A stretch of 64,000 bases of DNA from Coniochaeta sp. PMI_546 (lineage: Eukaryota; Ascomycota; Sordariomycetes; Coniochaetales; Coniochaetaceae). Positions 24,074 through 46,309 of the stretch are shown here, one piece after another. The notes beneath the pieces are model-generated. The model had not been told where the DNA came from. It was given only the letters and a program-made list of their open reading frames with translations, and searched no databases. The DNA is taken from assembly GCA_021432605.1 (NCBI GenBank), contig MU271163.1:1-64000 (forward strand), written 5' to 3'. Every line of letters starts with the position of its first letter. Position 1 is the stretch's first letter. The position numbers were made by a program, and so were the translations under genes.

Positions 24074-25918
24074 GGCTGAGCCTTCGGTATCTGTTGTGTC
24101 ATATAATTACTGTGCGGGCGGGAAGGATAGCCGGAGTCCGGTCAATATATGCATCCTACATATACGACCACCAAACATCGGGCTTTGGCCTCAGTCTGCA
24201 ATCGGGATATTCTGCATCAATGGTTTTGAAGATGACGTTATACTCCGGGCTCGAGAGTATAAACCCCCATCCTTCCGTCTCGAATGAGGTGTCGTGCCCC
24301 TCGATGCCATACATCCCTACTGCAACCTTGACCTTTGTCCGTCAGCACCCAGATCAGACGAACTATATCCAGAAGACATCATAACTTTTGGACTAGTCCT
24401 ACATCATCTATGTGTGCCGCTGGTTGTGGCGGCTAAAGGTGCCGCAGTTCGAACTACCTTAACTACGATTAGGTCTTATATACGGTCCTGTTTTGTCTGA
24501 GACTACTGTAAAAAATTCCCTGTAAAGCTATGGACTTCGCTTACGCTTGGCGTTCTAACAAATTGAGCGAACCAGGGAAGATTATAGGGTCACATAACAA
24601 GGTCCGCCTAAGTTCGTAACATGATTGGAGATAGCATCTCGAGCTTCTTATGCCAAGTCTTCAGCTCGAAGTCAGGTCAGGTCACGCTACTAGTTATGGG
24701 CCGATTGCCATGCAAGGGCTCTTGTTGATGACCTACACCTCGTGGCATTGATGGTGATTTCGAGACAACGCGTACTTAGGTCAGACAAGATGAGGTGGTG
24801 GTGGGAATGGATTGGCATGATGGACGGCTCAAGTACGCTAATACGATCTCTCCTTTACCGGGCAAAGTGTCAGGGTGAATCTAGTGACTAGGTAACTCTC
24901 TCACAGCCTAAGACTAGTTTTATTTAGTGATCAATATTCGATAGCTCCCGGCCGACCGACGTGTTGTTACCAAACTCTCTTCCCTATGTCGGTTCAGCTT
25001 TTGGAACTTGTCTTCTAGTATTCACTAGCAGCGATCGCGGTAATAATAACGAGAATCGCGCTAATAATCATAACTCTCCGAAAACCATTCAGTCGTACCA
25101 ATTCGTACTACCCTTGGCCGACATGGCAAGCAACGAGATACCGAGCGTAAGCGATACACCTGCTCATACCGCCAGCAGAATCATGGACTCGTCGTTGAGG
25201 GATTACAACATCAAAGCCCGGAAGAATGTGCTTTCGGTCGGGGCCAGGGGGCTCTCGTCAAGGACTCATTCTTTGTCATAGAATGATGCGAGTAAACATT
25301 TCCTAGTAGGGAAAGATGGCGCCGGGAAAATGTCGGGCATGAAGAATCGCATTCCCGGTGGGTAGTGATGGGATAAATCACCGGAGAACAAGGAACCGCG
25401 AGATGCGATGAATCGCGAAAGCTGGCCGCCTGCTGTCAGATTGGCTTGCTCCCGGCGAAACAAGGTGCGGGCCGCCGGTCTGTAGGCAATTGCTGTCGAG
25501 ATTGGCGCCATGTTGCCTTTGGCACTGGTTCAGGGGCCTAATTGTGGGTCACACGAGAAGCTGTCGTATTCATTTCCTCAAGGCTTTTAGTATTGTTGGT
25601 TGCTACTCTGACCGGTCATACGCTGGTTGAGCTCATTGTGTTGGCTTCTATACGGCGATCACTGGGCAAAAGGCCTTCTCCAGTGGGAAGGCTTTTGCTT
25701 CTTGTGATCTCTGGTATATTCGCTGAGCCTTCCAAGTAGGAGGTTGGCAAGTGGCCTGCGGGGTAGGCCAGGGCCTGTCACGTGGTCAAGGCTAGTCCCC
25801 TGGCTTCCCTCCAGTCTACAGGAACTGGCGCCATATTCCAACAAGTATGTCCGCTTTCATTTTCAACAATAAAAAAAGAAGACCACATATAACAGGATCG
25901 CCTTGAAACTGTTACGCT
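24074..25918. other. Intergenic region, 1.8 kb
   Basis: No convincing coding sequence on either strand. The longest open frames (24070-24384 and 24961-25281 on plus, 25266-25511 on minus) lack family features. Base composition is mixed and no repeat was noticed. The last few hundred bases are presumably the promoter of the ankyrin gene, with an A-rich stretch (AATAAAAAAAG) about 50 bases before its ATG. Confidence 0.5.
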
Positions 25919-27955
25919 ATGGCGACTACCTCGTCATCTGGTCACGACTACATGAATGACCCGTTGGTCAGCGACCTTGCCGAGAGAGGCACACCGCGAG
26001 CCGCTCTTGTTGATGCACTCTTTTCTGAGGACTTCGAGCGGTGCCGTGAACTGCTGGACGCGCACCCGGAGCTCGTTAACACCCCCTTACGACACCATGC
26101 CTATGTCCGATTACAAAATGGCGACTCGGCTTGGGGACCCCTTTACGACGGACGTTACCAGAACGTGACACCGGTCGTCTTTGCATCCCTAGTCCCGCGG
26201 TTCCGAGAGAAGCACATGGGTTTGCGCGAGCTTTCACCATCTGGCCTCGCTAACATTGCACTGCTCGTTGAGCGTGGCGCTGTACTGGAAACAACTCCCG
26301 GTGCCGATAATTGGACCTCGTATCTCCTTACCGAGATTTGTCGAGATTACGATAGCCCGGAAGCTCTGAGCCTCCTTGTCCGTATCGGTGCTGACATACA
26401 TACCAGACGGCTGGACAATCGCAACTACACTCTTCTGCAGGTAGCTGCAAGCCGAGGTGCCGTCGGAGCCGTCGCCATTCTTCTCGATAGTGGGGTTCCT
26501 ATGAACTACGCATGGGAGGAGGACAGGGAGTGTGCTGACGGCACTCCGCTCCACTCTGCGGCGGAAACGGGGCGTCACCATGTCGTCAAGCTCCTCCTGA
26601 GCCGAGGGGCCCTTTCAGACATGGAGAAACGAGACCATATGGGCCGCACCCCGCTTCTCTGTGCCGTCAGGGGCTCTTTGTGGCAACGCCCCGATGCTAA
26701 TCCGCCGCTAGACGCCGGCCGGGAGGAAACTATTCGCCTTCTTGTCGACGCTGGAGCTGACCTAATGGTATCAGACGAAAAACCCGCTCTGTGGGGCAAT
26801 GCTCATTTCTTATCAGACTCGCCACTGGGTCACGTCTCGAGATGGGGCGGCGCCGACATTATTCGATATCTGGCAGCAAAGGGATCCGATATTCACCAAC
26901 AACGGTCATACCCTGTGACAAGAGGGTTTCCCTATGGTGTCGGGGGCGGCAGGGTGACCCCACTACACTGGGCCGTGTACAACTGGAACGCTGCTGGCGT
27001 GCAAGCACTCTTGGACCTCGGTGCGGACCCGGACGCCACGGATGAGCACGGGCGACAGCCATTACATTGGGCAGCACTCGGACGAGGTCTCTCAGACAAC
27101 TTCTCATCCAAATTTAGATGTACCTCCCACATTTGGTTTGAACTCGGGGCCGAGTCTCGGAGCGCGGCTTTTTTTGATGCGCTAGCTGCACTGGACTCGA
27201 CCATCTCGCAACTTGATGTCCACAAGGCCAATATCGATCGGCAAGACGCCTTTGGCCGAACCGCGCTCCATTACGCCGCCTCTACGAAGCTAGTCGGGCT
27301 TGCCGCGCACCTGATTAGGAAAGGCGCCGACGTCAGCCTAGCCGACGACGAGGGACGCACCGTGTTTCACTATCTTGCGGACCCTCTTCATCATGATCAT
27401 ACACTGGAGCCGGTCGACGGCGACCTCAAGGATGAGCATCTCAGCGCTGCCTTACTTGGACGGATTCAAGGTGTCGACGTGAACCATCGCGACAATGAAG
27501 GCTCGACTGCGCTCCACGTGGCTTCGAACGAGGCGTCTGACGCGGCAGTCGCGCTCCTTCTCAGCCTCGGCGCTGATCCCAACCTGCCCGACCGGAAAGG
27601 CTCGACCCCATTGCATCTCGCAGCACGTCGTGCCTGGTGGGTTAGTGTTGGCACGTACGAACCGCACGAGTACTCGGCGTGGAGCAAGCGGGCCGTGCGG
27701 ATCAAGGAGCTGCTCTTGGGCGCTGGGGCAGATGCGAGCGTGCGGGATGCCCAGGGACGGACGGCGGCAGAGATTGAGGACGCCACCACCCAAGAACTGA
27801 GTCGGGGACGGACCAAGTACTTAGAATACATGGCAAGTCCAGTCCTGCCCGAAGGCCTGGGCCGCGGCCGCGGTCAGTGGCAGAGAAGTCCACTCCCCCA
27901 AGGGGGTTTCGACACGCAAGTCCGTTCTGGTGCTGGACATGGGAGAGGATACTGA
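25919..27955 (+). CDS. Ankyrin-repeat protein
   Basis: One intronless frame of 678 residues. From about residue 100 to 640 it is a run of ankyrin repeats, recognisable by the TPLHxAA...GA(D) pattern: GTPLHSAAETGRHHVVKLLL, GRTPLLCAV, VTPLHWAVYNWNAAGVQALL, RQPLHWAALG, GRTALHYAASTKLVGLAAHL, GSTALHVASNEASDAAVALL and GSTPLHLAARRAWW. Each helical pair ends in variants of GADP or GADV. The C-terminus is Gly/Arg-rich (EGLGRGRGQW...GHGRGY), an RGG-like tail. No signal peptide, membrane segment, NACHT or kinase domain is present. Ankyrin arrays bind proteins; no partner is indicated here and the neighbours suggest none. It is transcribed toward the chitinase gene on the opposite strand. Intact. Confidence 0.92.
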   Translation: MATTSSSGHDYMNDPLVSDLAERGTPRAALVDALFSEDFERCRELLDAHPELVNTPLRHHAYVRLQNGDSAWGPLYDGRYQNVTPVVFASLVPRFREKHMGLRELSPSGLANIALLVERGAVLETTPGADNWTSYLLTEICRDYDSPEALSLLVRIGADIHTRRLDNRNYTLLQVAASRGAVGAVAILLDSGVPMNYAWEEDRECADGTPLHSAAETGRHHVVKLLLSRGALSDMEKRDHMGRTPLLCAVRGSLWQRPDANPPLDAGREETIRLLVDAGADLMVSDEKPALWGNAHFLSDSPLGHVSRWGGADIIRYLAAKGSDIHQQRSYPVTRGFPYGVGGGRVTPLHWAVYNWNAAGVQALLDLGADPDATDEHGRQPLHWAALGRGLSDNFSSKFRCTSHIWFELGAESRSAAFFDALAALDSTISQLDVHKANIDRQDAFGRTALHYAASTKLVGLAAHLIRKGADVSLADDEGRTVFHYLADPLHHDHTLEPVDGDLKDEHLSAALLGRIQGVDVNHRDNEGSTALHVASNEASDAAVALLLSLGADPNLPDRKGSTPLHLAARRAWWVSVGTYEPHEYSAWSKRAVRIKELLLGAGADASVRDAQGRTAAEIEDATTQELSRGRTKYLEYMASPVLPEGLGRGRGQWQRSPLPQGGFDTQVRSGAGHGRGY

Positions 27956-28400: not shown

Positions 28401-31400
28401 TTAATTTCCGTAGTACCAGCCACCATTCACCGTTGGGACGCCCGGTATATTTAGGCTGTGGGGTTGCACTCCGTGGCCAAGCCACACGGCGTCAAACGCA
28501 TCGGCGGTAGGTCGGAACGTGCGCTGGTTCATAGGCTGACCGTCTGGAGTGGGATCCCCCCTTTGGTCGGTCCAGACGTAGGACAGCGAGTCCATGTCTG
28601 CAATGCCGGCGGTGAAGAGGTGATTTCCGAAGTCGACCAGGGTCTGGCCCCACCGCGACAGACTTGGTGATTCGGTGTCTCCTATATACCAGAGTCCCGT
28701 GTTGGCACTTTGAATGGGGCAATTGAAAACCGTGGTGCGGTCGTTGTAATATGCCCCTTGGCCGAAGTTCACATCGTTGCCCTCGCTGTCTCTCTCATCT
28801 CGCGTCACTGGACAAATTGATCAGCAGTTATTCGGCACGGGTAGGGGTGGTGATGTGAGGGAGGGCACCTACTGCGGCCATCGACGTGAGGGTCGATATC
28901 GTTGTAGTATACTACGCGCTGGCCGTGAAAGACGGCGAGGGTAGCAACCCCGACACGAAAGTCACGTGCGCCGGTACCACCTCCGGTCGGGCGCCGGAAG
29001 GTACGGGGTCCAATTGGAATGTGGAGGTGAAAGACAACCCAACGGTCCTCCGGGTTGGTGTGTGAATTCTGTCGGTACCGGTCACGGACGGCGGTGGATG
29101 GCGCTGTGCCAACCGAGGGTCCTATCCAGTAGGCCACTTCAAGAATGACCTCTGTGTCCACGACATGCCGGGAACGGAGCCAGCGGGCGTAGTGCAGGGT
29201 GAGGTCACCGTTGAGCACGCCCTCGAGCGCCAGGCGCACGCTAGGTGAGTCACTAGTGCCGCGATTGCTGCTGTCAAAAGCTTCAAACCGGCGCTTCCAC
29301 AAGTCGACGAGCTCTTCAGAAAGCGGACCGTAGAGGTCGCTGTCGCCATTGGAGTCGTTTCGCAGCCCACGCCGAACCAGCCGGTCCAACTCCTCCCGCA
29401 CGTCAGACTCATCGAGCGGCGATGCGTCGCGGGTCCTGGCCCTCGGGCCTGACGGGTACTCGCAGAGCTCTCCTCGGGCGGTATTACTTTCATCTATGGC
29501 ATCTCGGGCGCTGTACACGTTACATAGGAAATCGGCCGTGAACTCGGACGGGTCTACCGTTGGCCCCACGTTGGCAATGTCGGCGCCCCTGGGATATAAG
29601 AAGTCGCGCACGAGGCTGTCACTTGGCAGCATGCGGTCCGTTCCGACCATGTAGCTATCAAAGAAGTTGACTTTGTTGACATCCTGATGTGTCGCGAAGA
29701 AGAAGTAGCTCATAATGTTGACCAGGTTGGTGAACCGGGTCTGGTCCATTGCCTGCCGCTTCCTAAGATCCGATGTCGACAATGTCGACGATATGGACGA
29801 TGCCGACGTCGGAGCGTCGCTAATGCCATGTCCTGCCCGCTTTGTAAGCTCCGAGTATGCGCCGGCTGGGCAGGTTGGGTCCATCATGAAGGTCGAGAGA
29901 TAATACTTGAACTCCTCTAGATTCGCGTCGTCGCCCGATCTCTCAATAACCTCGGGGACGCCCGCGCAGCAGAAAGCTGGATACGTGGCTAAGCACGAAA
30001 GCTCATCACTCGGGCCGCCGAAGTTCTTGGCGATGAGGATGTTGTCAGGTGGGCATGAGTCCTCGCAGAGCACCGCGACGTCTGTTTTGAGCAGGTTGGT
30101 CTGGTGGCCGTACCATTTGCAGTTCTGGAATGGCTTGGGAATTTCGGGACCCTTGCAGCAGAACGCACGCTTCCCCGTCTGGCAGTAGGGCTCCCCTCCA
30201 AAGCCCACGTTAGAAGCCACAACAAACTTTGGGTAGTCGCCTGGGCACGTCGTCTGGGGGTCGCCTGTTGGGCAGTTGGGCGAGTCGCCAAACCACTTGC
30301 ACTCCCCGTACGGCTCCGTTGTTGGGTTGAGAGTACAGCAGGCTGACTGGTAGCCCTTGCTGCAGCCCGCGTTAGTAGTGCCAACCTCAACCTCTTTGCT
30401 GCTGCACCCGCCGCTGCAGTGGCCGCTGTTCTTGAATCCCCGCCATTGGCAAAAGGTGAGTTCCTTCTTGGGACAGCACAGCGTGTGAACCGTGTTCGAG
30501 CCGTAGGGGCACCCTTGGCTAGTGAGCATGAGCTGTGACGTCTCATCCTGCCGTAACAGAGTGTTGAAGCCCTCGGGACAAGTCTCACCGCAGTTAACCC
30601 ACCGGCAGAACTCGGCTTGCGGATTCGTCGTGTCCATTTGAGCCTCGTGCGTTGTTGGGATGCTTACGGGCCGCCCCAAGGCGTTGGCTAGGGCCACGGC
30701 ATTGTCTCCGTTGATGTTGTCGTGGCTGGCGGCCCAGACCATGACGCCGCCCATACAATGCGCCTTGGCAAAGTCACCCTTAATCTTGAAAGTGTCACCA
30801 TCGTCGAAGGACGTCCACTGGTTGCCCCACGTAATCATCTTGACAGCTGCAGCTTTGTCAAGCGTCGGCGTCAGGTTATGCTCGGCGATAATGTCGGCAA
30901 TCTCTGTGTTGAGCAGCACGCCGGCAGCGTCACTACAAGGGCCGGCATCGCCAGCCGATACGACGGGGCAGCCTGGATGGCTGCACGAAGTCGAGGCGAG
31001 CGTCATGCTTCGGCCGTAGAAGGCGAGGCCCATGGTCACCTTGGCCGGGTCAATATTATTGCGCCACAGCAGGTCGAGACCGTCGGAGATTTCGGTAAGA
31101 TTCGTGTGCGGGTTGACTCTAGCGCCTTGTCAGCAACATACCCGTTCTTTCTGCGGCCCAGGCGATGGGGCAGCAACTCACTGTGCGCCATGAATTTTGC
31201 CCCAGTCCGTCGTCAAATCCCAGGCCCCGTGCATATCATAGCTCATCATGTTGAACCAGTCGACATTTTCCTCAAGCTTGACAATGTCAAAATGCTGAAG
31301 GTACCAGAAGCTGGCCGGGAGTGTGACCGAGATGCCCCAGTTACTGTTGGCATTCTTTAGGGCCTTCCGCAGTCGGCCGATGAAGACGGGGAAGTTGACG

Positions 31401-32338
31401 AAATCCTCACTACGGCCGCTTCGCTCCGGCGCTCCCGGGTATTCCCTACGTACACCCGTAAGCGTTCGCTCGTCTTGTCAACCCACTCCTGTGAAGCTGG
31501 GAATGACTCACCAGTCGATGTCGACGCCGTCAAACCCAAAAGATGTCATGAGTAACACTAAGCCGGTGATGAATTTGTCCTGATTAGCCTTAGAACTGAC
31601 TATGTCCGAGAACGTGGTTCTCGTGATCTGATCCGGGTCGTTAAAAGTCCAGCCGCCGATAGCCAGCCATATCTTGACGTTGGGATCGGATTGCTTGAGC
31701 ATCATGACGCGTTTCCAGAGTTCTATGCCGTCGGTCGATGACGGGATGGTCTGGAATGAGGGCTCGCCAACGCTCGCAAAGGCGAAGTTAATATGGGTGT
31801 AAACGCCAAGTGGAATGTTCTCCGGGTTCATGCGGTGACAGGACCGGATTGGCGCCCATCCCTCATAGTAGCCGATGACGCGCTTGATGGGCTGCGTGGA
31901 AACGTCGCACGTCTGGTGCTTCACAACCTTGTCACCGCAGAACTCAGATGTCATACCGCAGAAGCCGAACTTGGAGCAGCAAACGTTGAGTGGGCACTTT
32001 GTGTTGTTAACATACTTGGCTCCCCAGCCGCCGGGATCGCATTGGGCCTTGCGGTCGCACTGGAAGGCGCAGTCGGCACCGCAGAAATCCTGGCCCAAGC
32101 CGCAGAAGCCGAAGCGTGAGCAGCACCCGATATCACAGGGCCGGTTCTGATCGCATTGCTTCTGGGCGGTGCAGCTATTCTTGCAGCCTGTCCCGCAGAA
32201 GTCGTCCCCGAAACCGCAGTAGCCGAACTTCGAACAGCAGCCGACGCTACATGGGACAGTCTCGCTGCATTGTTGGGCAGCGACACCAGTGGCTAGGGCC
32301 AAAATGCCTATGAAAAGGAGTGTAAAGTAGTGTAGCAT
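28401..32338 (-). CDS. Large secreted CBM18-GH18 chitinase (subgroup C type)
   Basis: Four exons (31512-32338, 31182-31445, 28873-31118, 28401-28807) sum exactly to 1247 residues. The start at 32338 is preferred because it opens with the signal peptide MLHYFTLLFIGILALATG. Three hevein-type CBM18 chitin-binding modules follow at about 24-145 (CCSKFGYCG, CCSRFGFCG, CCSKFGFCG). The GH18 barrel spans about 155-470, with WLAIGGW and the catalytic DGVDIDWE (Glu277, its codon placed just after intron 1) and FNMMSYDMHG. About 500-750 is a Cys-rich stretch of repeated C-x-W...CC modules (CRWVNCGETC, CQWRGF, CKWFGD, CKWYGH). The long C-terminal region ends LSRWGQTLVDFGNHLF and is not assigned. This is the layout of subgroup-C fungal chitinases, which resemble the alpha/beta chitinase subunit of yeast killer toxins. 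It cuts chitin outside the cell. All catalytic residues are present. Confidence 0.92.
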
Positions 32339-33635
32339 ATCGGTTGACCAATAACAACTGACGTAATGAGAGGTAGGATGGGCACAGGAAGAGCCATTCG
32401 AGACTGGAGTGAGGTATGCCACCAGTCTGGAACGATGGCCTTCTGAGGGCTATCATATACGAGCGAGTCGTTCGTTCGTCGGCGAGGCATAAAGGAGTCA
32501 TCCTTCGAACGATGTGGGGGCCCTCTCGGCCTACGCATAGGCCAGGCCAATCTATCGACAGGCAGTATTGAATAGGGGGTTGCAGGTGACTGTTGGTTCA
32601 GGAAATTAGCAAGTCGTATCATAAGGTGGGAGTCGGGCACAGTTCCTGTCGTGTAGGGGTAGGAATAGAGTCCAACTTCCAAAGATATCGACTAGAGAGC
32701 ACCCATGTCCAATACTCTGCGAGCTAGGGATAACGAATTGCCCATTGCATGAGAGAGGCCGATGCTCGGACCTTCAGATGGCACTATCAAGAGGTGGACC
32801 TATCCGGTATTCGAAAGCGCTTACCGTTTGGTTTGGGACAAATCATAGAGCAGTAGACAGAGCGGTCGCAGTTCTCCAACTCACGCGTCTCGGTCGCAGT
32901 CTAAGCAAGGGTGCACCACGCTACAACCATAATCCCATATTTGAGCGAAAAACGATAGCATGGCTAAGTACGGCAGTCTGCTGCGATTCGGGAGCAGCGC
33001 CCGTAGCTTGGCCTGCGTCAAAATCAATAGTGTACGTTCCATACGAGCAAGATCGGTTCTAGATCCGTCGGTGTTGTCTAAAAGCGGTTAAGGCCGTTAA
33101 CTAAGAGGGTTCGGACCGGTTCGCTTCCTCTGTTTAGCTTCTGACATGCATGGCAGCTGTTAGCGCAGCCCGCTGTAAGACCCGCGGCTAAATCGCTTGG
33201 ACGATCTCGTGGGAGGGGTGGGAAATGAATGGAAATTTCCCGCGCAGATATGGGTTTTTGGACCTCCCTTACCAAGACTAGTACAAAATGATTGTCACAA
33301 AGTTAGAATTTGGCATTATCACATGGTGCTCATCAACCGCTAGCCGTGGGAGTGGAGCAATGAGGAGTAAATGAGCGATGGGCTAGCCGGGCCGGGCCGT
33401 CTGAACAACATTGACCATAGCCGTCAGGGGCAGTCGATATCAGACGACTCGCGAGCAGATTGAGTACTTGCCGAATGAAGTGCATCCTGCCCTTCATGCC
33501 GTCAAGTAGGACGCCTTCCCGCCATGTGTGAGACATTCCTGGCCTGCTCCCCATCGGTCACGTCGAGGCATCGCAGTTCTAAAGACTTCTCTTTCAAGGC
33601 ATCGCCCACGCTCCTTTTTTCGTTCTTTTGGTATT
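32339..33635. promoter_or_regulatory. Divergent promoter of chitinase and glucanase-LysM genes
   Basis: About 1.3 kb separates the start codons of two divergently transcribed secreted wall-degrading genes. No gene is seen within it. A pyrimidine-rich run (CTCCTTTTTTCGTTCTTTTG) lies just before the glucanase ATG, as is common in fungal promoters. I name no specific regulator site. Confidence 0.5.
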
Positions 33636-36600
33636 ATGACCCTGCAAATGTTGCTGTCACTCGTTCTTATTGTCGCCGGCCTCCTCACCCAGGTTGATGC
33701 CTCTCACCACCACCGCGTCCACCACGCCCAGCACCATGCCGTCCACAGGGCCATGGCCAGACGCGGTGATGTGATCTCTAACACTACTAGCACCTCAAAT
33801 TCTAGTGCTGAGGCTCTGTACGCCGAAGCCCAAGCCCGCATCGCCATTGCGAACAAGCTCCGCATTGACAACCCTCGCTTCAACAAAAATTCCTTTCCCT
33901 CTGACCATTTCCAGGCAAACCAGACCAAGGCACCTCCCATTATCTTGACGCGAGGCCTCTGGAGGAGAGACAACGCCTCGGTCCCTATCGACTACTCGAT
34001 ACCCCCCGAGCTATTGCAAGCTGCCAAGGAAATCGCCGAGTCGACCTCGCACACCAGTGCTGTGAGCAAGTATGCCGAGGAAGCCGCGGCACTTAAAACC
34101 CAGTACTGGCCGGAGGCTAATGACACCAACACGCCCGCACCGGCCAAGGAGCCTATGAATGATGTCACCAAACGCGACAGCGCCTTTTGGATTGCGTCAA
34201 TGAACATGAACGGGATTGCCCCCTACGCAGGGGGCACATACAACGTAAGCGAGACGTCCTCGTAGCAAGCTATCTAGACTAACAGGTGGACAAGATCTTC
34301 CGTAATGTCAAGGACTACGGCGCAGTTGGTGACGGTATCCACGACGACACAGCAGCCATCAACAACGCTGTCACAGACGGCGGCCGCTGCGGCATGTCCT
34401 GCGGATCCAGCACCGCCAAGCCGGCCGTCATCTACTTTCCCGGGGGCACCTACCTTGTCAGCGCTTCTATCGTTCAGTATTACAACACACAGTTTCTCGG
34501 CAATGTAAGTCTCAACACTTCCAACGACAGGAAGTCGTAAGATTGACGGTTACATACAGCCTTCGAACCGCCCCGTCATCCTCGCCGCAGCCAGCTTCGT
34601 CGGCTTGGGCGTCGTTTCATCCGATGTATATATCGACGGCGGGAATGGAGCTGAGTGGTATTCACCCTATCACCCTCGGCCGGCAAAGTAGACAAAGCTA
34701 ACCAGATCCGGTCTTCCCAGGTATGTCCCTCAGAATAACTTCTTACGGTCCGTCCGCAACTTCGTTATCGACATTACCAATACGCCTGCCGATGCCTACG
34801 TATGCGGCATTCACTGGCAGGTAGCCCAGGGCACTGATCTGCAAAATGTCGATTTCTATATGGCTCCCGGTACCACTCAGCAGGTGATTTCTTCTATGAA
34901 AGTCTGGCTAGGGCTCGCAAGCTGATCAAAGCCACAACAGGGAATTTATATGGAAAACGGTAGCGGCGGCTTTTTAAGCGATCTATACTTCTACGGCGGT
35001 AATATTGGGTATGTTCGAATTGTGACCGTGCCAAATCTTTCGTGCTAACAAGACGGGATGCCACAAAACAGCGCGTATCTAGGGAACCAGCAGTTTACCA
35101 GCCGCAACCTTCTCTTCCACAACTGCCTGACGGGCCTGGAGATTCACTGGGATTGGGCCTGGACAATGCAGGGTATCACCATCGTTGGTCGGGGAACTTC
35201 GTCGGGCAATCCCAGCACGGGCATCTCTATCGTGGGCGGCGTATGTTCTATGTCCTACGGCAAAATTGTGCAGCGCTGACAAGTCTTCCTCTCAGGCCGG
35301 CGGCCCTGGCAGCACGGGCCAAGGAGTCGGGTCCTTCATTTTATTAGACTCGACCCTGTCGCAGCTCACCCTGGGCATCTCAACGACCCTACTGGCCGAA
35401 AACTCGACCTCCCTGCTGCTGCAGAACGTGGCTCTCAGCAATGTCGCCATTGCCGTCCAAGACTCGGCACGCGGAGCCGTCATGCTGGCGGGTGGCTCGT
35501 CTGTGAGCATTCCATCATGGGGTTTCGGCAACATCGTTACGGGCGAGAGCGGCACGTCATCGTTCCAAAACGGCAACGCTATCCCCGCCGCCAACCGGTC
35601 GTCCAGCCTCACGACGGCGGGCGGAGGCAGCAACTTCTTCGGGCGCTCGGCGCCCACGTACAAGGACGTGCCGATCGGCAGCTTTGTCAATATCAAGTCA
35701 TACGGCGCAAAAGGTGACGGCGTGACCGACGACACGTCGATCATCAACCAGGTCCTTGCTGTAGCCGCCAACGCCAGCCAGATTATCTTCTTCCCCTACG
35801 GCATGTATGTCGTGACCGACACCATTCGAGTCCCTCTGGGATCGCGCGTCGTCGGCCAGGCCTGGTCGCAGATTGTCGGCAGCGGCGCAAATTTCCAAGA
35901 CATGCTCCGACCGCGGCCTGTCGTGCAAGTGGGGCTGGCCGGCGACTCGGGCATCATTGAGATCACCGACATGATGGTCTCTGTACGCGGACCTACGGCG
36001 GGAGCAGTCTTGATGGAGTGGAACGTCCACGAGAAGACACAGGGATCCGCCGCAATTTGGAGTACGTCCTTTCGGCAGCCCAGTCCCCCCTTGTAGCAGC
36101 AAACGCGTTCCCTGGCTGACATGACGAGTAGATACGCACTTGCGGGTGGGGGGCAACGTGGGATCGTCTCTACAGGCCGCCGACTGCCCCAAGCTAACAG
36201 GCTCCGTCAACCCCAGGTGCATCGCTGCCTCTCTCCTACTGCATCTCACGCCGTCATCATCCGTCTACATAGAGAATCTCTGGGCGTGGTAAGTCTGGTT
36301 TTTGGGATGCCGTCTGTTGATTTTATATTCTTAAAGCATTTATTAAGATCTACTCTAGGGTTGCCGACCACGACGTAGATGTCGCAGCGCAGACCCAGAT
36401 CGACATCTATTCGGGACGAGGTAGGTCTGGACAACCCTGACCATGTGCGCGGCTACTGATGTCATGAAATCAGGGATATTGATCGAGAGCCAAGGCCCGA
36501 GCTGGCTCTGGGGAACGGCGTCAGAGCACAGTGTTATGTATCAGTACCAGCTCTCCAATGCCCGCGACATCTTCTTCAGCATGATCCAGACCGAAAGTCC

Positions 36601-39063
36601 GTATTTTCAGCCGGGACCTAAGGCACCGACGCCGTTCACACCGGGTATGTTCCCCAACGATCCAGATTTCACGTCGTGCAGCGCGAGTTCGACGACATGT
36701 GCCTTCGCATGGGCGCTGCGCATACTGGACTCGAGCTCCATCTACGTCTACTCCTCGGGCCTCTACAGCTGGTACAGCAGCTACTCGCAAGCGTGCGTGG
36801 CCACTGAGAGCTGCCAGGATCGTGGCGTCGGCATCGAAAACACTTCGGGTATATGGGTGTACGCGCTCGCTACCAAGGCGATCAAGGAGATGGTTAGCCC
36901 CGTCAAGGTGGCCGCCACACTGGCCGCTCCTAACCAGAACGGCTACCTGTCCTCCATTCTCGCCTGGCTCGAGGGCTCTACTGCTGTCGTCGGTAACCGG
37001 TTTCCTGGGTGGTCTATCTTCCCCAACGGGTCGCTGGCCGACGCGGGTCTAACCAATGCCTGCGAGGCCGCCATGTACCAAACACTCAAGTGCGACACCT
37101 CGGCCCAGGCCTTCCTTTCGGATGGCTACCAGGGCAACGTCGGCAACACCACGAGACTAGCCCTGATGTGCGACCCGAGCTGCTCCGACTCGCTGCGCTA
37201 CCTTCACAACAGCATTGTCTCCGCCTGCGCTTCCACACCAAACCTTTTGACTGGCTGGCCACTCCTGGGCTTTGCTGATATGGTCTGGTCGCATTGGAAC
37301 GAGACTTGTTTCAAAGACCCTTCTACAGGACAGCTTTGTGACAGTGGGTCTCGTATACCCCTATCGGTCGTTCATTATACTAATGTGTCGTAGCCGTCCT
37401 ATCGGGCTTCTCCGCTGTTGCCGACATCTCGCTGATGCCACGTGACGAGATGTGTTCGTACTGCAACCTCCAAAAATACAAGTTAATGCAAAGCTCGGCG
37501 TTCTCGGTTTACGATAATGCCACCTTCGAGACGAGATACCAATACATCGCCTCCAGTATGCCGCTCCCCCTTTTCCCCCGTCCGGTCCGTGGTAGATGCT
37601 AACTTCCTCCGCCCTTGCCAGCATGTAGTGCCGGCGTCTCTAACTTTAATCCGACCCCTTACGGCTTTCAGTCCGACGTCGACGTGAGCGAGGAAATTTG
37701 CACGTCGGGCCAGTTCTACACCGCTCAAGCGGGCGACACATGCGACTCAATATCCGGCGCCAAAAGCGTATCATCGGCGACACTATTTTGGACCAATCCC
37801 TCTATCAGGGATTGCTCCTCGATATCACCCGGAACTCGGCTTTGCCTACCACTAGCATGCCCAGTCATCCACGTTATCACGGCCACCGAATCTTGTTTGA
37901 ATATCACGACCAATGCCGGCATTCTGACGTCGGACCTCAGCAGCTACAACCCGGGAATCAACTGGGACTGCGACCACTTACATGACGGTACCATCAAGTG
38001 GGGCTCCACCCTCTGCATCTCGCCGCCGGGCGGGGGTTACACTCCTAATTCAACCTCCAACGGCACTGCGTCACCCTGGAGTGGCGGCAACGGCTACCGC
38101 GATCCGGCCGTGGCTCCGCCAGCAGGCTCTGTCGTGGCGCCGGGCACGACAACCAAGTGCGGGGCCTGGTACAAGCACACTGTCGCTACCGAAAGTTGTC
38201 CAGAGATCTGCATCGCCGGTGGCGTCGTCTACTCGCTTTTCCTATCCGTCAACCCCTCGCTGCACGACGCCACGTGCAACACCGATCTCGTCGTCGGCAC
38301 CACGTATTGCATCCATCCCACGCGTGACTGGAACGCCACTGGCTCTTTACCCACCCTTACCCCGTCCTCGGCTGTATCTTCCAGCACAGGAAGTACGACG
38401 AGGAGTACAGACACCAGCAAGTCGGTTACGACCGGGTTCAGCACCACCGAGACCTCGACCAGTAGCACAAAGACCTCTTCTACCTCGTCGACCGTGTCAA
38501 GCACTACAAAGATATCGTCCACCTCGTCGACGAGTCCCACACCTTCACCGACCAGCTATTGCACGCATGGTACCGGACCCGGTGGCTACCTCGGCCTGTG
38601 CGACTTCAGCTGCTATTTTGGCTTCTGCCCCTCGCCCTGCACCTGTACGGCCACAAGCAGCACACCCAACCAGGCGCCGGCCCTGACGTCCGACCACGGC
38701 TACGCGCTCCCGGGCGAGGCGTCCGACTTTGGGCCGCTGTGCGACTACACATGCTCCCACAACTACTGCCCGGACACGGTGTGCACCAATGTGCCGCCCA
38801 GCAGCGACCCGGGCACGGGGAATGTGTGTGTCCAAGGCAGTGGCGATGGCGGCTATTCAGGCTTGTGCAGCTTCTCGTGCAACTTTGGCTATTGCCCACC
38901 CGGGCCGTGTGTCTGTACCATGTACGGCACCCAGATACCGCCGCCGCCCGCATCGGGTGGGTCCGGTGTCCCGGCGCCAGGTTTGGACCAGAGTTACTCT
39001 GGGCTTTGTAGTTTCGCGTGCGGCCACGGCTATTGCCCGAGCACGGCCTGTACTCCAGTTTGA
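33636..39063 (+). CDS. GH55 beta-1,3-glucanase fused to LysM domains and Cys repeats
   Basis: Twelve exons: 33636-34244, 34286-34504, 34560-34657, 34721-34883, 34941-35008, 35072-35240, 35296-36061, 36132-36288, 36359-36420, 36474-37343, 37394-37555 and 37622-39063. All use GT-AG and sum to 1594 residues. The chosen Met begins a signal peptide (MTLQMLLSLVLIVAGLL). Two parallel beta-helix (Pectate_lyase_3) halves typical of GH55 exo-beta-1,3-glucanase follow: FRNVKDYGAVGDGIHDDTAA at about 206 and FVNIKSYGAKGDGVTDDTS at about 574, ending near 910. Within the same exon (36474-37343) the protein continues into the N-terminal region usual for multi-LysM proteins (DMVWSHWNETC, then MCSYCNLQKYKLMQSSAFS). 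Three LysM domains start near 1142, 1197 and 1296. A Ser/Thr linker (1354-1427) and four LCxFxCxxGYCP Cys repeats complete it. It would cut beta-glucan and bind chitin outside the cell. Two separate genes are unlikely, since the junction lies in one open exon. Confidence 0.88.
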
Positions 39064-43612: not shown

Positions 43613-44188
43613 GTTGCAGGCGACACTGGCTCACGGGGTTACTCAGGGACCTTGGCTGCACTGCGGTCCGGGAACCGAATGTTGAGGAGCCGACCATACT
43701 TATGGATCGCCGTGCTGCGCATGATATATCAGATTCGATTCGCCTTGCAGGGCCGTGCGAAGGATCGTAGGATGCTGAGTAAGATTAACGCCGAGGAATG
43801 ACTAAATTGCTTCTAGAACTCCGACAACTACCTGGTATGGGTCCAGTTAGCGCATCCTTCGCAACGTTTTGATCCATGGTCGCCGGAAAAAGGGAGCTTT
43901 TGCGCGCGAAAAGGTCAGATGCCAAGCAGCGAATATCCGAAGTTGCGAATCGTCTAAAACACCTCGTCGCGTGTGTCAATGCAACGCCTGGTTCATGCTT
44001 ACAAGTCTCCGGAAGTCCGTCCGAATAGCGACCGAGGAGGAATCGAGCCGGGATGGATGCCGTGGATTACAAGATGTCAGCGCCTGACCTTGTCTTCGAC
44101 CTTAGCTCACCGAGCTCGAGGCATTTAGTCACCTCTTCGGGCTCCCCATACCCAGAACGTCCTCTCTCAGTCAGGACTTACGCTCGTT
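43613..44188. promoter_or_regulatory. Divergent promoter of LysM and spherulin-4 genes
   Basis: 576 bases separate the start codons of two divergently transcribed secreted-protein genes. No open frame with family features lies within it. Shared control is inferred from position only. Confidence 0.45.
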
Positions 44189-46309
44189 TTGGCAAACATG
44201 CGTTCATCATGGCCTGCAAGGCTGGTTGCTGCCTCTACGGCGCTACTCTTCTGCTCAGCTGCGGCGGCGTCGCAACTGCTCAGCACTGATGCTGCAGTAC
44301 AACAGCTTCATGCTCGCGACATATGGGATACCTATGACAGCTCATTGCAAGACTGGCTTAGCCATCCGACATGCAGCATAGGTGATGGGCCCGGCGGAGG
44401 AGAGACACACGGAGATGTCATGGTTGCGATCGCATCATACATCAACCCAACCGGGTCCAAGGGTGCTTGGGACCGGTTGATAGGCTACCCGAATAACAAG
44501 ATGCCCATCCTGTGCGCCAACGTTGTCAATGGCCCCGGCGCCAAGCCAGCGGATGAAGACTGGCAAGATGTCATCAATCGCGCTGCTGGATCAGGGAAGA
44601 TTGTCTTGGGCTACGTGCGGACAGGGTATCTCGGTCTCTCTGACGATCACTACACGACGCGCCTTGGATCGACCAACTTGGCGGACTGGGCAGCTCAGAT
44701 CCAAGAGGACGTGGATGCGTGGTACGATATCTACGGCAGCAGCATCGGGGGCATCTTCTTTGACGAAGGCTGGCCTGGGTGCGGCAGCAGCAGCACTTCC
44801 AGCGAGTACCACGACTTGTACAAGTGGATCAACGACTACACAAAGCGCAACCATCCTGGCGCCTACACAGTCCTGAACCCAGGCTCACCGTGCGACGAGT
44901 GCTTCAAGGATACCATGGACACGCTCTTGACCTTCGAGCTCTCCTACACCGCGTACAAGTCATCTTACACGCCAAATAAGTGGAATGCAACCGACGCACG
45001 CAAGCTGTGGCACATCGTGTACAACGTTCCCAGAAGCGCGATCAACGAGGTGGCTACATTGGCTCGTCAGCGTGGCGCCGGCTTCCTACAGATCACTGAC
45101 GAGGACATGCCGAACCCTTACGACATCCTGCCCGACGACGACTATATGCAGGCGCAGCTGCTTCAGGCATCGGGCGGCACGGTAAAGACTGATCCTGCCT
45201 CTACCTGGCCCGCAGGCGAGGCTGTAGGAAGCGTCGGCTCCTTGAATGTGGGATTCTTCGACTACAGCTCTGCCAATATGATCTGGTCTGGCGTCACGGG
45301 TGCGTTCGGGTACAATATCTACGTCAACGGCCGCCTCGGCGCGAGCGTGCCCGGCAAGATGACGTCGATCACAATAGGCGGTCTCCAGCCAGGTTCCTCC
45401 AACAGCGTATATGTGAAAGCTATCGGCGGCGGTGGAGTTGAGGGAGGACAGTCTCCAACAGCTTCAGTGTCCACCACAGCTCTGCCAGATGGGAAGTCAG
45501 TCTCCAATCCAAGCTACACTGTGAGTGGCGGCTCAAGCACCTACCAAGCCGACGTACTCATTCCGTACGCCTTTGTCCGCCTTTTCATCTGGGATTTGGT
45601 GGATTGCAAACTCGAGAGTCACCCTGCCTGGCCCATCAACTTCGGTGACAAGGGTCACTATGTCTGCACGCAATACATGGTCGAGGGCACCAAGCTGTAC
45701 AAATACACCGGCGTGATCCTGCCGGGCCAGAACGCGCCTTTCACCTTCACGAAGGTCGCTGACATCACCCGTACGATTTCCGGATACACCTACAAATGGA
45801 CGCTGCCTTACGGCAGCGACACGTTCGACGCGAGCAGGTACCTCGTCCAGGGGCAGGGCTACAACCCCTCCATCAACCTTATCCAGCCTGGCACGGAAGC
45901 CTATGACTGCAAAGGCTCGAGCGGTTGCGGACCGGGCCTCACACCCGCTTGCGTTGCCGCCGCAGCCAATATCTCGCGTAGTGACACCTACCACTACACC
46001 AACTTGTAAGTGATTACGTCTGCTCTGACGACTCAGCTACCGCTGGACAGATTGATAGGCTGACTCCTCGCTCCTAGGGGTGGTGCCGACCAGACCGGGG
46101 TTTGCGCCCCGAGCGTAGACAATGGAGGTTACGGCTGCGGCATCTTCGTGCAGAGTTTCAATGGCGCACAGTGCATCCTCACCGGTAACCAGCTCTACTC
46201 GGGCTACGAGCAGATCCGTGAGTTCGGCAGCTGCGATACATGCGGCTCGTATCACAGACCCGATGGCTGTCTCATCACAATTAACTACGTGACTGGCTGC
46301 TACCCTTAG
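44189..46309 (+). CDS. Secreted spherulin-4 (GH135-like) protein with FN3-like domain
   Basis: Two exons (44189-46005 and 46078-46309) sum to 682 residues. A signal peptide lies at the start (WPARLVAASTALLFCSAAAA). The spherulin-4 domain follows at about 50-330: MVAIASYINPTGSKGAWDRL, KIVLGYVRTGYLGL, IGGIFFDEGWPGCG, TVLNPGSPCDEC and FLQITDEDMPNPYD. This family includes Sph3 (GH135) of Aspergillus, which cleaves galactosaminogalactan; the FFDE acids sit where its active-site acids are expected. About 355-430 resembles a fibronectin-type III domain (ANMIWSGVTGAFGYNIYVNG, SNSVYVKAIGGGG). The last part (430-682) is an unassigned extracellular region ending in a Cys-rich tail (CGIFVQSF, CDTCGSYHRPDGCLI). 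It may trim a galactosamine-containing wall or matrix polymer. Substrate and activity are inferred. Intact. Confidence 0.85.

What the first reader, a model, noticed from the sequence alone, without database searches (positions are those of the whole stretch)
33636..39063. One gene fuses a whole GH55 glucanase, three LysM domains and four Cys repeats
GH55 enzymes and multi-LysM proteins are normally separate fungal genes. Here a single open exon (36474-37343) carries the end of the GH55 domain (GIENTSGIWVYALATKAI) straight into the N-terminal region usual for LysM proteins (SHWNETC). The twelve-exon model closes in frame at 1594 residues. A beta-1,3-glucanase tethered to chitin-binding LysMs would target chitin-glucan composite walls, or combine degradation with chitin hiding.
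Basis: partly seen in the sequence, partly recalled or inferred. Interest (0 to 1): 0.75.

Follow-up and report, generated by a model that had tools for sequence, protein, structure and literature searches.

The report
Conserved glucanase fused to chitin-binding LysM domains
A fungal gene appears to encode one secreted protein that joins an apparently intact beta-1,3-glucan-cutting enzyme to chitin-binding domains and a further wall-binding tail; the same join is found in many other fungi and has been noted in print, so it is a little-studied known kind rather than a one-off oddity.

Summary
Twelve exons with GT-AG introns close at 1594 residues; exon 36474-37343 runs from the GH55 end into a cysteine-rich domain without a stop. 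The fusion is not a gene-model accident and not unique: 33 of 71 proteins found with residues 700-1594 carry GH55, this middle domain and LysM in one chain, in three classes of Ascomycota at least; nearest is Coniochaeta ligniaria (79%). LysM proteins with GH55 are in print for Raffaelea (PMC7441637) and, as 'pectin lyase fold', Penicillium expansum (PMC5662087), uncharacterised. Ten of eleven published GH55 active-site residues are kept. The four Cys repeats match the tails of three GH71 frames in the same genome, the place of CBM24. Best reading: a secreted wall-bound beta-1,3-glucanase holding chitin and perhaps alpha-1,3-glucan. Less expected is the evolution: GH55 halves form one clade, LysM halves do not; LysM-only proteins nest among fused ones, a few with what look like scraps of the GH55-side linker. 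This suggests one old fusion and repeated GH55 loss. Expression, cutting and binding are untested.

The parts
33636..39063 (+). GH55-LysM fusion gene; exons 33636-34244, 34286-34504, 34560-34657, 34721-34883, 34941-35008, 35072-35240, 35296-36061, 36132-36288, 36359-36420, 36474-37343, 37394-37555, 37622-39063; 1594 residues
   Evidence: all introns GT-AG, frame closes; homologues spanning both halves
33636..33701 (+). hydrophobic leader, likely signal peptide (residues 1-22)
   Evidence: sequence and hydropathy 3.1; no signal-peptide predictor run
33702..34175 (+). His-rich leader and probable propeptide ending in Lys-Arg (residues 23-180)
   Evidence: dibasic site within 45 residues upstream of GH55 in 24 of the 28 fused proteins (of 34) whose GH55 start was found
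34179..36976 (+). GH55 domain, two PF12708 beta-helices (residues 182-938)
   Evidence: Pfam 6.1e-93, two stretches; 5m5z 5.9e-205 over 182-938 and 3eqn 1.2e-187 over 182-936
36524..36604 (+). stretch holding Glu788-His789 and general acid Glu811 with Tyr814
   Evidence: aligned with MnLam55A Glu591-His592, Glu614, Tyr617
36474..37343 (+). exon 10: GH55 end runs without stop into the middle domain
36992..37653 (+). middle domain ('NTD', residues 944-1125; the span crosses introns 37344-37393 and 37556-37621), ten cysteines, helical in a homologue model, no Pfam name found
37699..37860 (+). LysM1 (residues 1141-1194)
   Evidence: Pfam LysM 1147-1191, just under cut-off; 24.8 bits, over cut-off, in the genome search
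37858..38028 (+). LysM2 (residues 1194-1250)
   Evidence: alignment A1 and homologue model; not called by Pfam
38158..38331 (+). LysM3 (residues 1294-1351)
   Evidence: alignment A1 and homologue model; not called by Pfam
38332..38556 (+). Ser/Thr-rich linker, 51 of 75 residues Ser or Thr
38554..39060 (+). four Cys repeats (residues 1426-1594), CBM24-like tail
   Evidence: 22 matches in the own genome, one of them this tail itself; the best other one 48% identical, in a GH71 frame; the name CBM24 rests on papers and recall
28808..32338 (-). neighbouring divergent GH18 chitinase with three CBM18 (first ATG placed at 32338 by eye; introns and 3' end not modelled)
   Evidence: frames 28808-31129 and 31511-32449

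Best explanation
One gene makes one secreted precursor. After the leader and a His-rich propeptide are removed (Lys-Arg at residues 179-180; inferred), the mature protein is a GH55 beta-1,3-glucanase with its active-site residues kept, followed by a ten-cysteine helical domain, three LysM domains expected to hold chitin, a Ser/Thr-rich linker and four CBM24-like Cys repeats that may hold alpha-1,3-glucan. The binding modules keep the enzyme on a fungal wall, where it trims beta-1,3-glucan; the target is probably the fungus's own wall during growth or autolysis, possibly also other fungi. The architecture arose by one fusion, and GH55 was lost again in several lineages, leaving LysM-only proteins. 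Shown by sequence: gene structure, modules, kept active-site residues, the clade of GH55 halves, the mixed placing of LysM halves. Inferred: secretion, processing, activity, binding, target, and the direction (loss rather than repeated gain).
For: Model closes in frame. 33 of 71 proteins found have the same modules in one chain. GH55 domain matches solved GH55 chains end to end, with much lower E-values for 5m5z (5.9e-205) and 3eqn (1.2e-187) than for endo-acting MnLam55A, 8jhh (3.8e-82). Of 11 MnLam55A positions that PMC10637969 names, ten match (E811, Y814, E788, H789, Q345, S371, W748, W750, D753, F316); Glu140 is Gln313, a relay place for which the paper names Thr149 in SacteLam55A. LysM units in the homologue model; its only PDB match at E <= 0.001 is the LysM effector Ecp6 (7.4e-4). 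Tail matches GH71 tails. GH55 halves: 37 rows one clade, 100/100, against 30 rows without the module. NTD-LysM halves: 33 fused rows against 16 LysM-only rows are not a clade, p-AU 3e-67, five changes forced. P0088 keeps the GH55-side linker before its NTD; P0078 and P0082 have a His-rich leader and a DTT...FPGF stretch as in the linker of fused P0014 (by eye). None of the seven Met residues between 861 and 1161 starts a segment as hydrophobic as the leader (best 1.35 against 3.1).
Against: No transcript, activity or binding data. LysM2 and LysM3 are not called by Pfam. 8 of 34 fused proteins have a KR or RR site at the GH55/NTD boundary, so the halves may part after translation in some species; the window has a single Arg there. 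GH55 proteins under 877 residues could not enter the first search, and only the 7984 candidates sharing most words were scored, so unfused members of the GH55 clade may be missed. Some LysM-only proteins may be incomplete gene models. The His-rich leader is no clean mark of GH55 loss: it also occurs in P0090 and P0096, which lie in the LysM-only nine-row group, and in one unfused GH55 protein, P0066. P0001, the nearest homologue, is partial at both ends, so the Cys tail is confirmed only by a metagenome fragment (P0072, 92%).
Confidence: 0.68

Rival explanations
1. Two separate genes (a GH55 enzyme and a LysM protein) were wrongly joined by the reader.
For: No transcript data exist here; the other LysM loci found in this genome are not near PF12708 matches.
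Against: One open exon spans the junction; 33 of 71 proteins found share the modules in one chain; no leader-like start before the LysM half.
Confidence: 0.03
2. The protein is made as one chain but cut at the GH55/NTD boundary, giving a free glucanase and a free LysM protein.
For: KR or RR site at that boundary in 8 of 34 fused proteins; LysM-only proteins of Aspergillus fumigatus are found in wall and extracellular matrix (abstract and passages of PMC6399445).
Against: No KR or RR site between residues 181 and 1594 in the window model; 26 of 34 fused proteins lack one at the boundary.
Confidence: 0.15
3. The protein is mainly aimed at other fungi (competition or mycoparasitism) rather than at the own wall.
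For: The divergent neighbour is a CBM18-GH18 chitinase; LysM genes without hydrolase domain are in most cases adjacent to chitinase genes in Trichoderma (passage of PMC3218866); the modules fit the main fungal wall polysaccharides.
Against: Fused proteins occur in Penicillium, Aspergillus and Microsporum among others, which I know mainly as saprobes or animal-associated fungi (recall); nothing here shows induction by prey.
Confidence: 0.3
4. The LysM half hides chitin fragments from a host (effector role) and GH55 is secondary.
For: The LysM part of the homologue model resembles Ecp6.
Against: Ten of eleven GH55 active-site residues are kept; LysM effectors are described as having no catalytic domain (passages of PMC6399445); I made no host-related test.
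Confidence: 0.08

Closest known systems
LysM proteins with GH55 in Raffaelea lauricola and R. aguacate (PMC7441637; passages and the legend of Fig. 4)
   Same: LysM-containing proteins there also hold GH55 (PF12708) domains, and CBM24, CBM18 or GH18 in some
   Different: order and full architecture not readable from the text (figures not held); functions stated there as still to be investigated
Penicillium expansum PEX2_101830 (1410 residues, three LysM, pectin lyase fold) and PEX2_003000 (1258, two LysM) (PMC5662087; passages with Table 2)
   Same: same size class and module types
   Different: listed as pectin lyase fold, the word GH55 does not occur in the main text; listed without signal peptide
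Fungal GH55 glucanases 3eqn (PcLam55A) and 5m5z (Chaetomium thermophilum)
   Same: whole catalytic domain
   Different: the solved chains (757-758 residues) match GH55 only
LysM effectors such as Ecp6
   Same: LysM units, chitin binding expected
   Different: no catalytic domain in effectors
GH71 alpha-1,3-glucanases with CBM24 tail
   Same: Ser/Thr-rich linker followed by like Cys repeats
   Different: other catalytic domain

Membership tests
GH55 | tandem PF12708 right-handed beta-helices over about 750 residues | tested here: met
   two stretches, 6.1e-93; residues 182-938
GH55 | general acid Glu with Tyr at +3, second Glu 23 residues before, water-relay and subsite residues | tested here: met
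   ten of eleven MnLam55A positions kept; Glu140 is Gln313
GH55 | hydrolysis of beta-1,3-glucan | not testable with these tools
   no assay
CBM50/LysM | LysM profile match | tested here: inconclusive
   LysM1 20.3 bits against 20.9 in the whole protein, 24.8 in the six-frame search; LysM2 and LysM3 not called
CBM50/LysM | beta-alpha-alpha-beta fold | tested here: inconclusive
   three such units in the model of homologue P0074, matches to Ecp6 and plant LysM, the latter mainly through a fourth, extra LysM of P0074; the window protein itself was not modelled
LysM effector (type A) | LysM only, no catalytic domain | tested here: not met
   GH55 in the same chain
CBM24 | Cys-repeat module after a Ser/Thr linker, as in GH71 | tested here: inconclusive
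   48% identity to the tail of a GH71 frame; no CBM24 profile was available; name from a PMC11837517 passage and recall
CBM24 | binding of alpha-1,3-glucan | not testable with these tools
   no assay
Subgroup C chitinase | GH18 domain in the same protein as LysM/CBM18 | tested here: not met
   GH18 is in the neighbouring divergent gene, not in this one

The most novel reading that the evidence does not exclude
GH55 and a middle-domain-LysM protein fused once, early in the evolution of filamentous Ascomycota, to make a wall enzyme that recognises beta-1,3-glucan, chitin and sometimes alpha-1,3-glucan; since then the catalytic half has been lost at least four times, so that some secreted LysM-only proteins, which look like LysM effectors, descend from a wall enzyme by loss of its catalytic domain.
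Probability: 0.5. Interest if true: 0.55.

Novelty: new member of a known kind. Interest (0 to 1): 0.37.

Why it matters
The protein may combine cutting of beta-1,3-glucan with holding of chitin and alpha-1,3-glucan in one chain. It is widespread, yet in the held library I found only passing mentions of the architecture. If LysM-only proteins really arose from it by loss of the enzyme, the origin of some chitin-binding effectors becomes a testable question.

Tried and rejected
Split gene: rejected (exon 10; 33 of 71 proteins found). Plasmid origin: one near search of exon 10 found nothing and says little. Fold of the middle domain: the whole-model searches were filled by LysM units (in one search only model residues 466-532 were spanned by a fifth or more of the rows), so its fold is open; it was not folded alone, since no stretch of window DNA and no returned protein holds it alone. 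A weak Pfam hit, DUF6229 at residues 932-981 (E 0.053), was set aside. NCBIfam, for four homologues, gave mainly bacterial LysM-protein and rhamnogalacturonidase-type models, all below their cut-offs, and nothing for P0078. A separate internal start of the LysM half: no leader-like segment. Chitinase neighbour in other species: not tested; the collections offered hold prokaryotes, viruses, plasmids and E. coli, metagenome scans were capped at zero, and the homology search gives no context.

Rows dropped. GH55 tree: the 37 rows marked fused include P0033, P0035, P0036 and P0037, which have GH55 and part or all of the middle domain but no LysM; left out were P0013, P0049, P0060, P0065, P0067, P0069 and the C5 fragment. 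LysM tree: window and P0001-P0032 against 16 LysM-only rows chosen by me as complete-looking; left out were P0033-P0037, P0072, P0073, P0075, P0077, P0080, P0081, P0087, P0091, P0092, P0094 and P0098-P0103. An earlier quick tree of 62 rows, with most of these in it, needed 11 changes.
Full report
What is there. Exon 10 (36474-37343) lies in a 322-codon open frame and codes for about residues 771-1060, the last part of GH55 and the first part of the next domain. No stop lies between the two, and no leader-like start: the seven Met residues found between 861 and 1161 are followed by segments of hydropathy 1.35 at most, against 3.1 for the first Met.

Modules. Residues 182-938 match solved GH55 chains from end to end: 5m5z (5.9e-205), 3eqn (1.2e-187) and, more weakly, the endo-acting MnLam55A 8jhh (3.8e-82). 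PMC10637969 (passages read) names eleven active-site residues of MnLam55A; on the printed alignment ten are kept in the window protein: general acid Glu811 with Tyr814, Glu788 and His789, Gln345, Ser371, Trp748, Trp750, Asp753 and Phe316; MnLam55A Glu140 is Gln313. The paper names Thr149 among the relay residues of SacteLam55A, so this place seems to vary. Residues 944-1125 hold ten cysteines; no Pfam family above cut-off was found there in the window protein or in the matching part of P0074, P0078, P0090, P0097, P0005 and P0084. Residues 1141-1351 hold three LysM units; only the first is seen by Pfam, at the edge of its cut-off. An AlphaFold model of the LysM-only homologue P0074 (mean pLDDT 76.8) shows a helical middle domain (most ten-residue blocks from 51 to 230 above 80) and three beta-alpha-alpha-beta units in the matching stretch, plus extra LysM beyond; the only PDB match at E 0.001 or better is Ecp6 (7.4e-4). 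A 75-residue linker with 51 Ser or Thr follows, then four Cys repeats.

The Cys tail. It has 22 matches in the same genome, one of them the tail itself. I ran Pfam on five of the host frames: three score as GH71 (L023, L029, L030), one as WSC (L024), one gives no family (L025). [quoted passage not shown] I therefore call the tail CBM24-like; the match of name and motif is partly recall, as no CBM24 profile was at hand.

Conservation. A search with residues 700-1594 gave 71 proteins, from the 7984 candidates sharing most words. By BLAST of each module, 33 carry GH55, middle domain and LysM (P0001-P0032, P0034), four carry GH55 and part or all of the middle domain without LysM (P0033, P0035-P0037), 32 carry GH55 alone, and two are GH71 proteins matched through the Cys tail. 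The 33 come from, among others, Coniochaeta (Sordariomycetes), Pseudogymnoascus (Leotiomycetes), Microsporum (Eurotiomycetes), Purpureocillium, Pleurostoma, Aspergillus, Penicillium, Uncinocarpus, Fusarium, Ilyonectria, Apiospora and Akanthomyces. The C-terminal end differs: WSC in P0003 and P0011, a 3-keto-disaccharide-hydrolase-type domain in P0002 and, below cut-off, in P0027, extra LysM in the metagenome fragment P0073 (by eye), the Cys tail in the window and in the metagenome fragment P0072 (92%).

Evolution. GH55 halves: 37 rows marked fused (four of them without LysM) form one clade with support 100/100 against 30 other rows, three of them from the window's own genome. Middle-domain-LysM halves: of 33 fused and 16 LysM-only rows, the fused rows are not one clade (p-AU 3e-67), and five changes are forced. 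Both trees set the window, P0001, P0002 and P0003 apart from the other fused rows (in the GH55 tree together with P0033, in the LysM tree together with LysM-only P0074). P0078 and P0082 sit with four fused rows (100/100), P0088 beside fused P0021 (100/89). P0088 keeps the GH55-side linker sequence before its middle domain. P0078 and P0082 have a His-rich leader and then a DTT...FPGF stretch as in the linker of fused P0014 (judged by eye). Leaders with five or more His in 20 residues occur in 17 of 38 fused rows (many of the others lack the true N end), 5 of 19 LysM-only rows and 1 of 32 unfused GH55 rows; since two of the five, P0090 and P0096, lie in the LysM-only nine-row group, the leader may be older than the fusion and does not by itself show loss. 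The simplest account is one fusion and four or five losses of GH55, depending on the root; repeated gain of GH55 from the same clade is less simple but not excluded, and gene-model errors could imitate loss. The trees are unrooted.

Setting. The divergent neighbour (frames 28808-31129 and 31511-32449, minus strand) is a GH18 chitinase with three CBM18, about 1.3 kb from ATG to ATG (my placing). In Trichoderma, LysM genes without a hydrolase domain are in most cases next to chitinase genes (passage of PMC3218866). The seven other LysM loci are all more than 60 kb from any PF12708 match; both calls are lower bounds.

What it most likely does. It is read as a secreted wall-bound beta-1,3-glucanase. 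A KR or RR site lies within 45 residues upstream of GH55 in 24 of the 28 fused proteins (of 34) in which the start was found, the window included (Lys-Arg 179-180), which suggests removal of a propeptide; at the GH55/middle-domain boundary 8 of 34 have one and the window does not. So the chain probably stays whole here, while in some relatives it may be cut. All steps of activity and binding are inferred.

What is in print. Searches of the held library. PMC7441637 (passages) says that LysM-containing proteins of two Raffaelea species also hold CBM24, CBM18, GH18 and GH55 domains, with functions still to be investigated, and shows their layout in a figure not held here. PMC5662087 (passages) lists two LysM genes with a pectin-lyase fold. 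PMC3627985 (passages) gives six GH55 proteins of Aspergillus fumigatus and does not use the word LysM in its main text. I found no paper in these searches on a single fusion or on loss of GH55, but no search was made for those very terms, and most subscription journals are not held. Hence: the architecture is known, this is a new member, and the evolutionary account is the part that may be new.

Noticed in passing
L014/L024 (contig C3, about 1727.3-1730.1 kb): A LysM gene without GH55 in the same genome: leader, a distant likeness of the middle domain (by eye), LysM, WSC and the same Cys tail, near a minus-strand frame that looks by eye like GH71 with Cys repeats. with the window's LysM half did not list it.
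   Followed up: partly
L007 and L025 (contig C8:323872-326484): PF12708 matches with in-frame stops (may be introns or decay) about 1.2 kb from a CBM24-like stretch on the other strand.
   Followed up: no
P0057 (Cordyceps fumosorosea): Named 'LysM domain protein' by its source, yet BLAST with the window's middle domain and LysM modules found nothing in it at 1e-3; its GH55 lies in the unfused group.
   Followed up: partly
P0079 and P0098 (Clonostachys): Middle domain and LysM in one protein with an alpha/beta-hydrolase-type Pfam domain: either another fusion or a merged gene model.
   Followed up: no
P0035, P0037: GH55 plus middle domain in one protein with Pfam PF13561 or PF00149, probably merged neighbouring genes in those annotations.
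   Followed up: no
window 44129-46006 (+) and 25907-27952 (+): A Spherulin4-family frame and an ankyrin-repeat frame on either side of the chitinase/glucanase pair.
   Followed up: no
residues 944-1125 of the model (window 36992-37653): A conserved ten-cysteine helical domain that goes with fungal LysM proteins and has no name in the Pfam and NCBIfam copies searched.
   Followed up: partly
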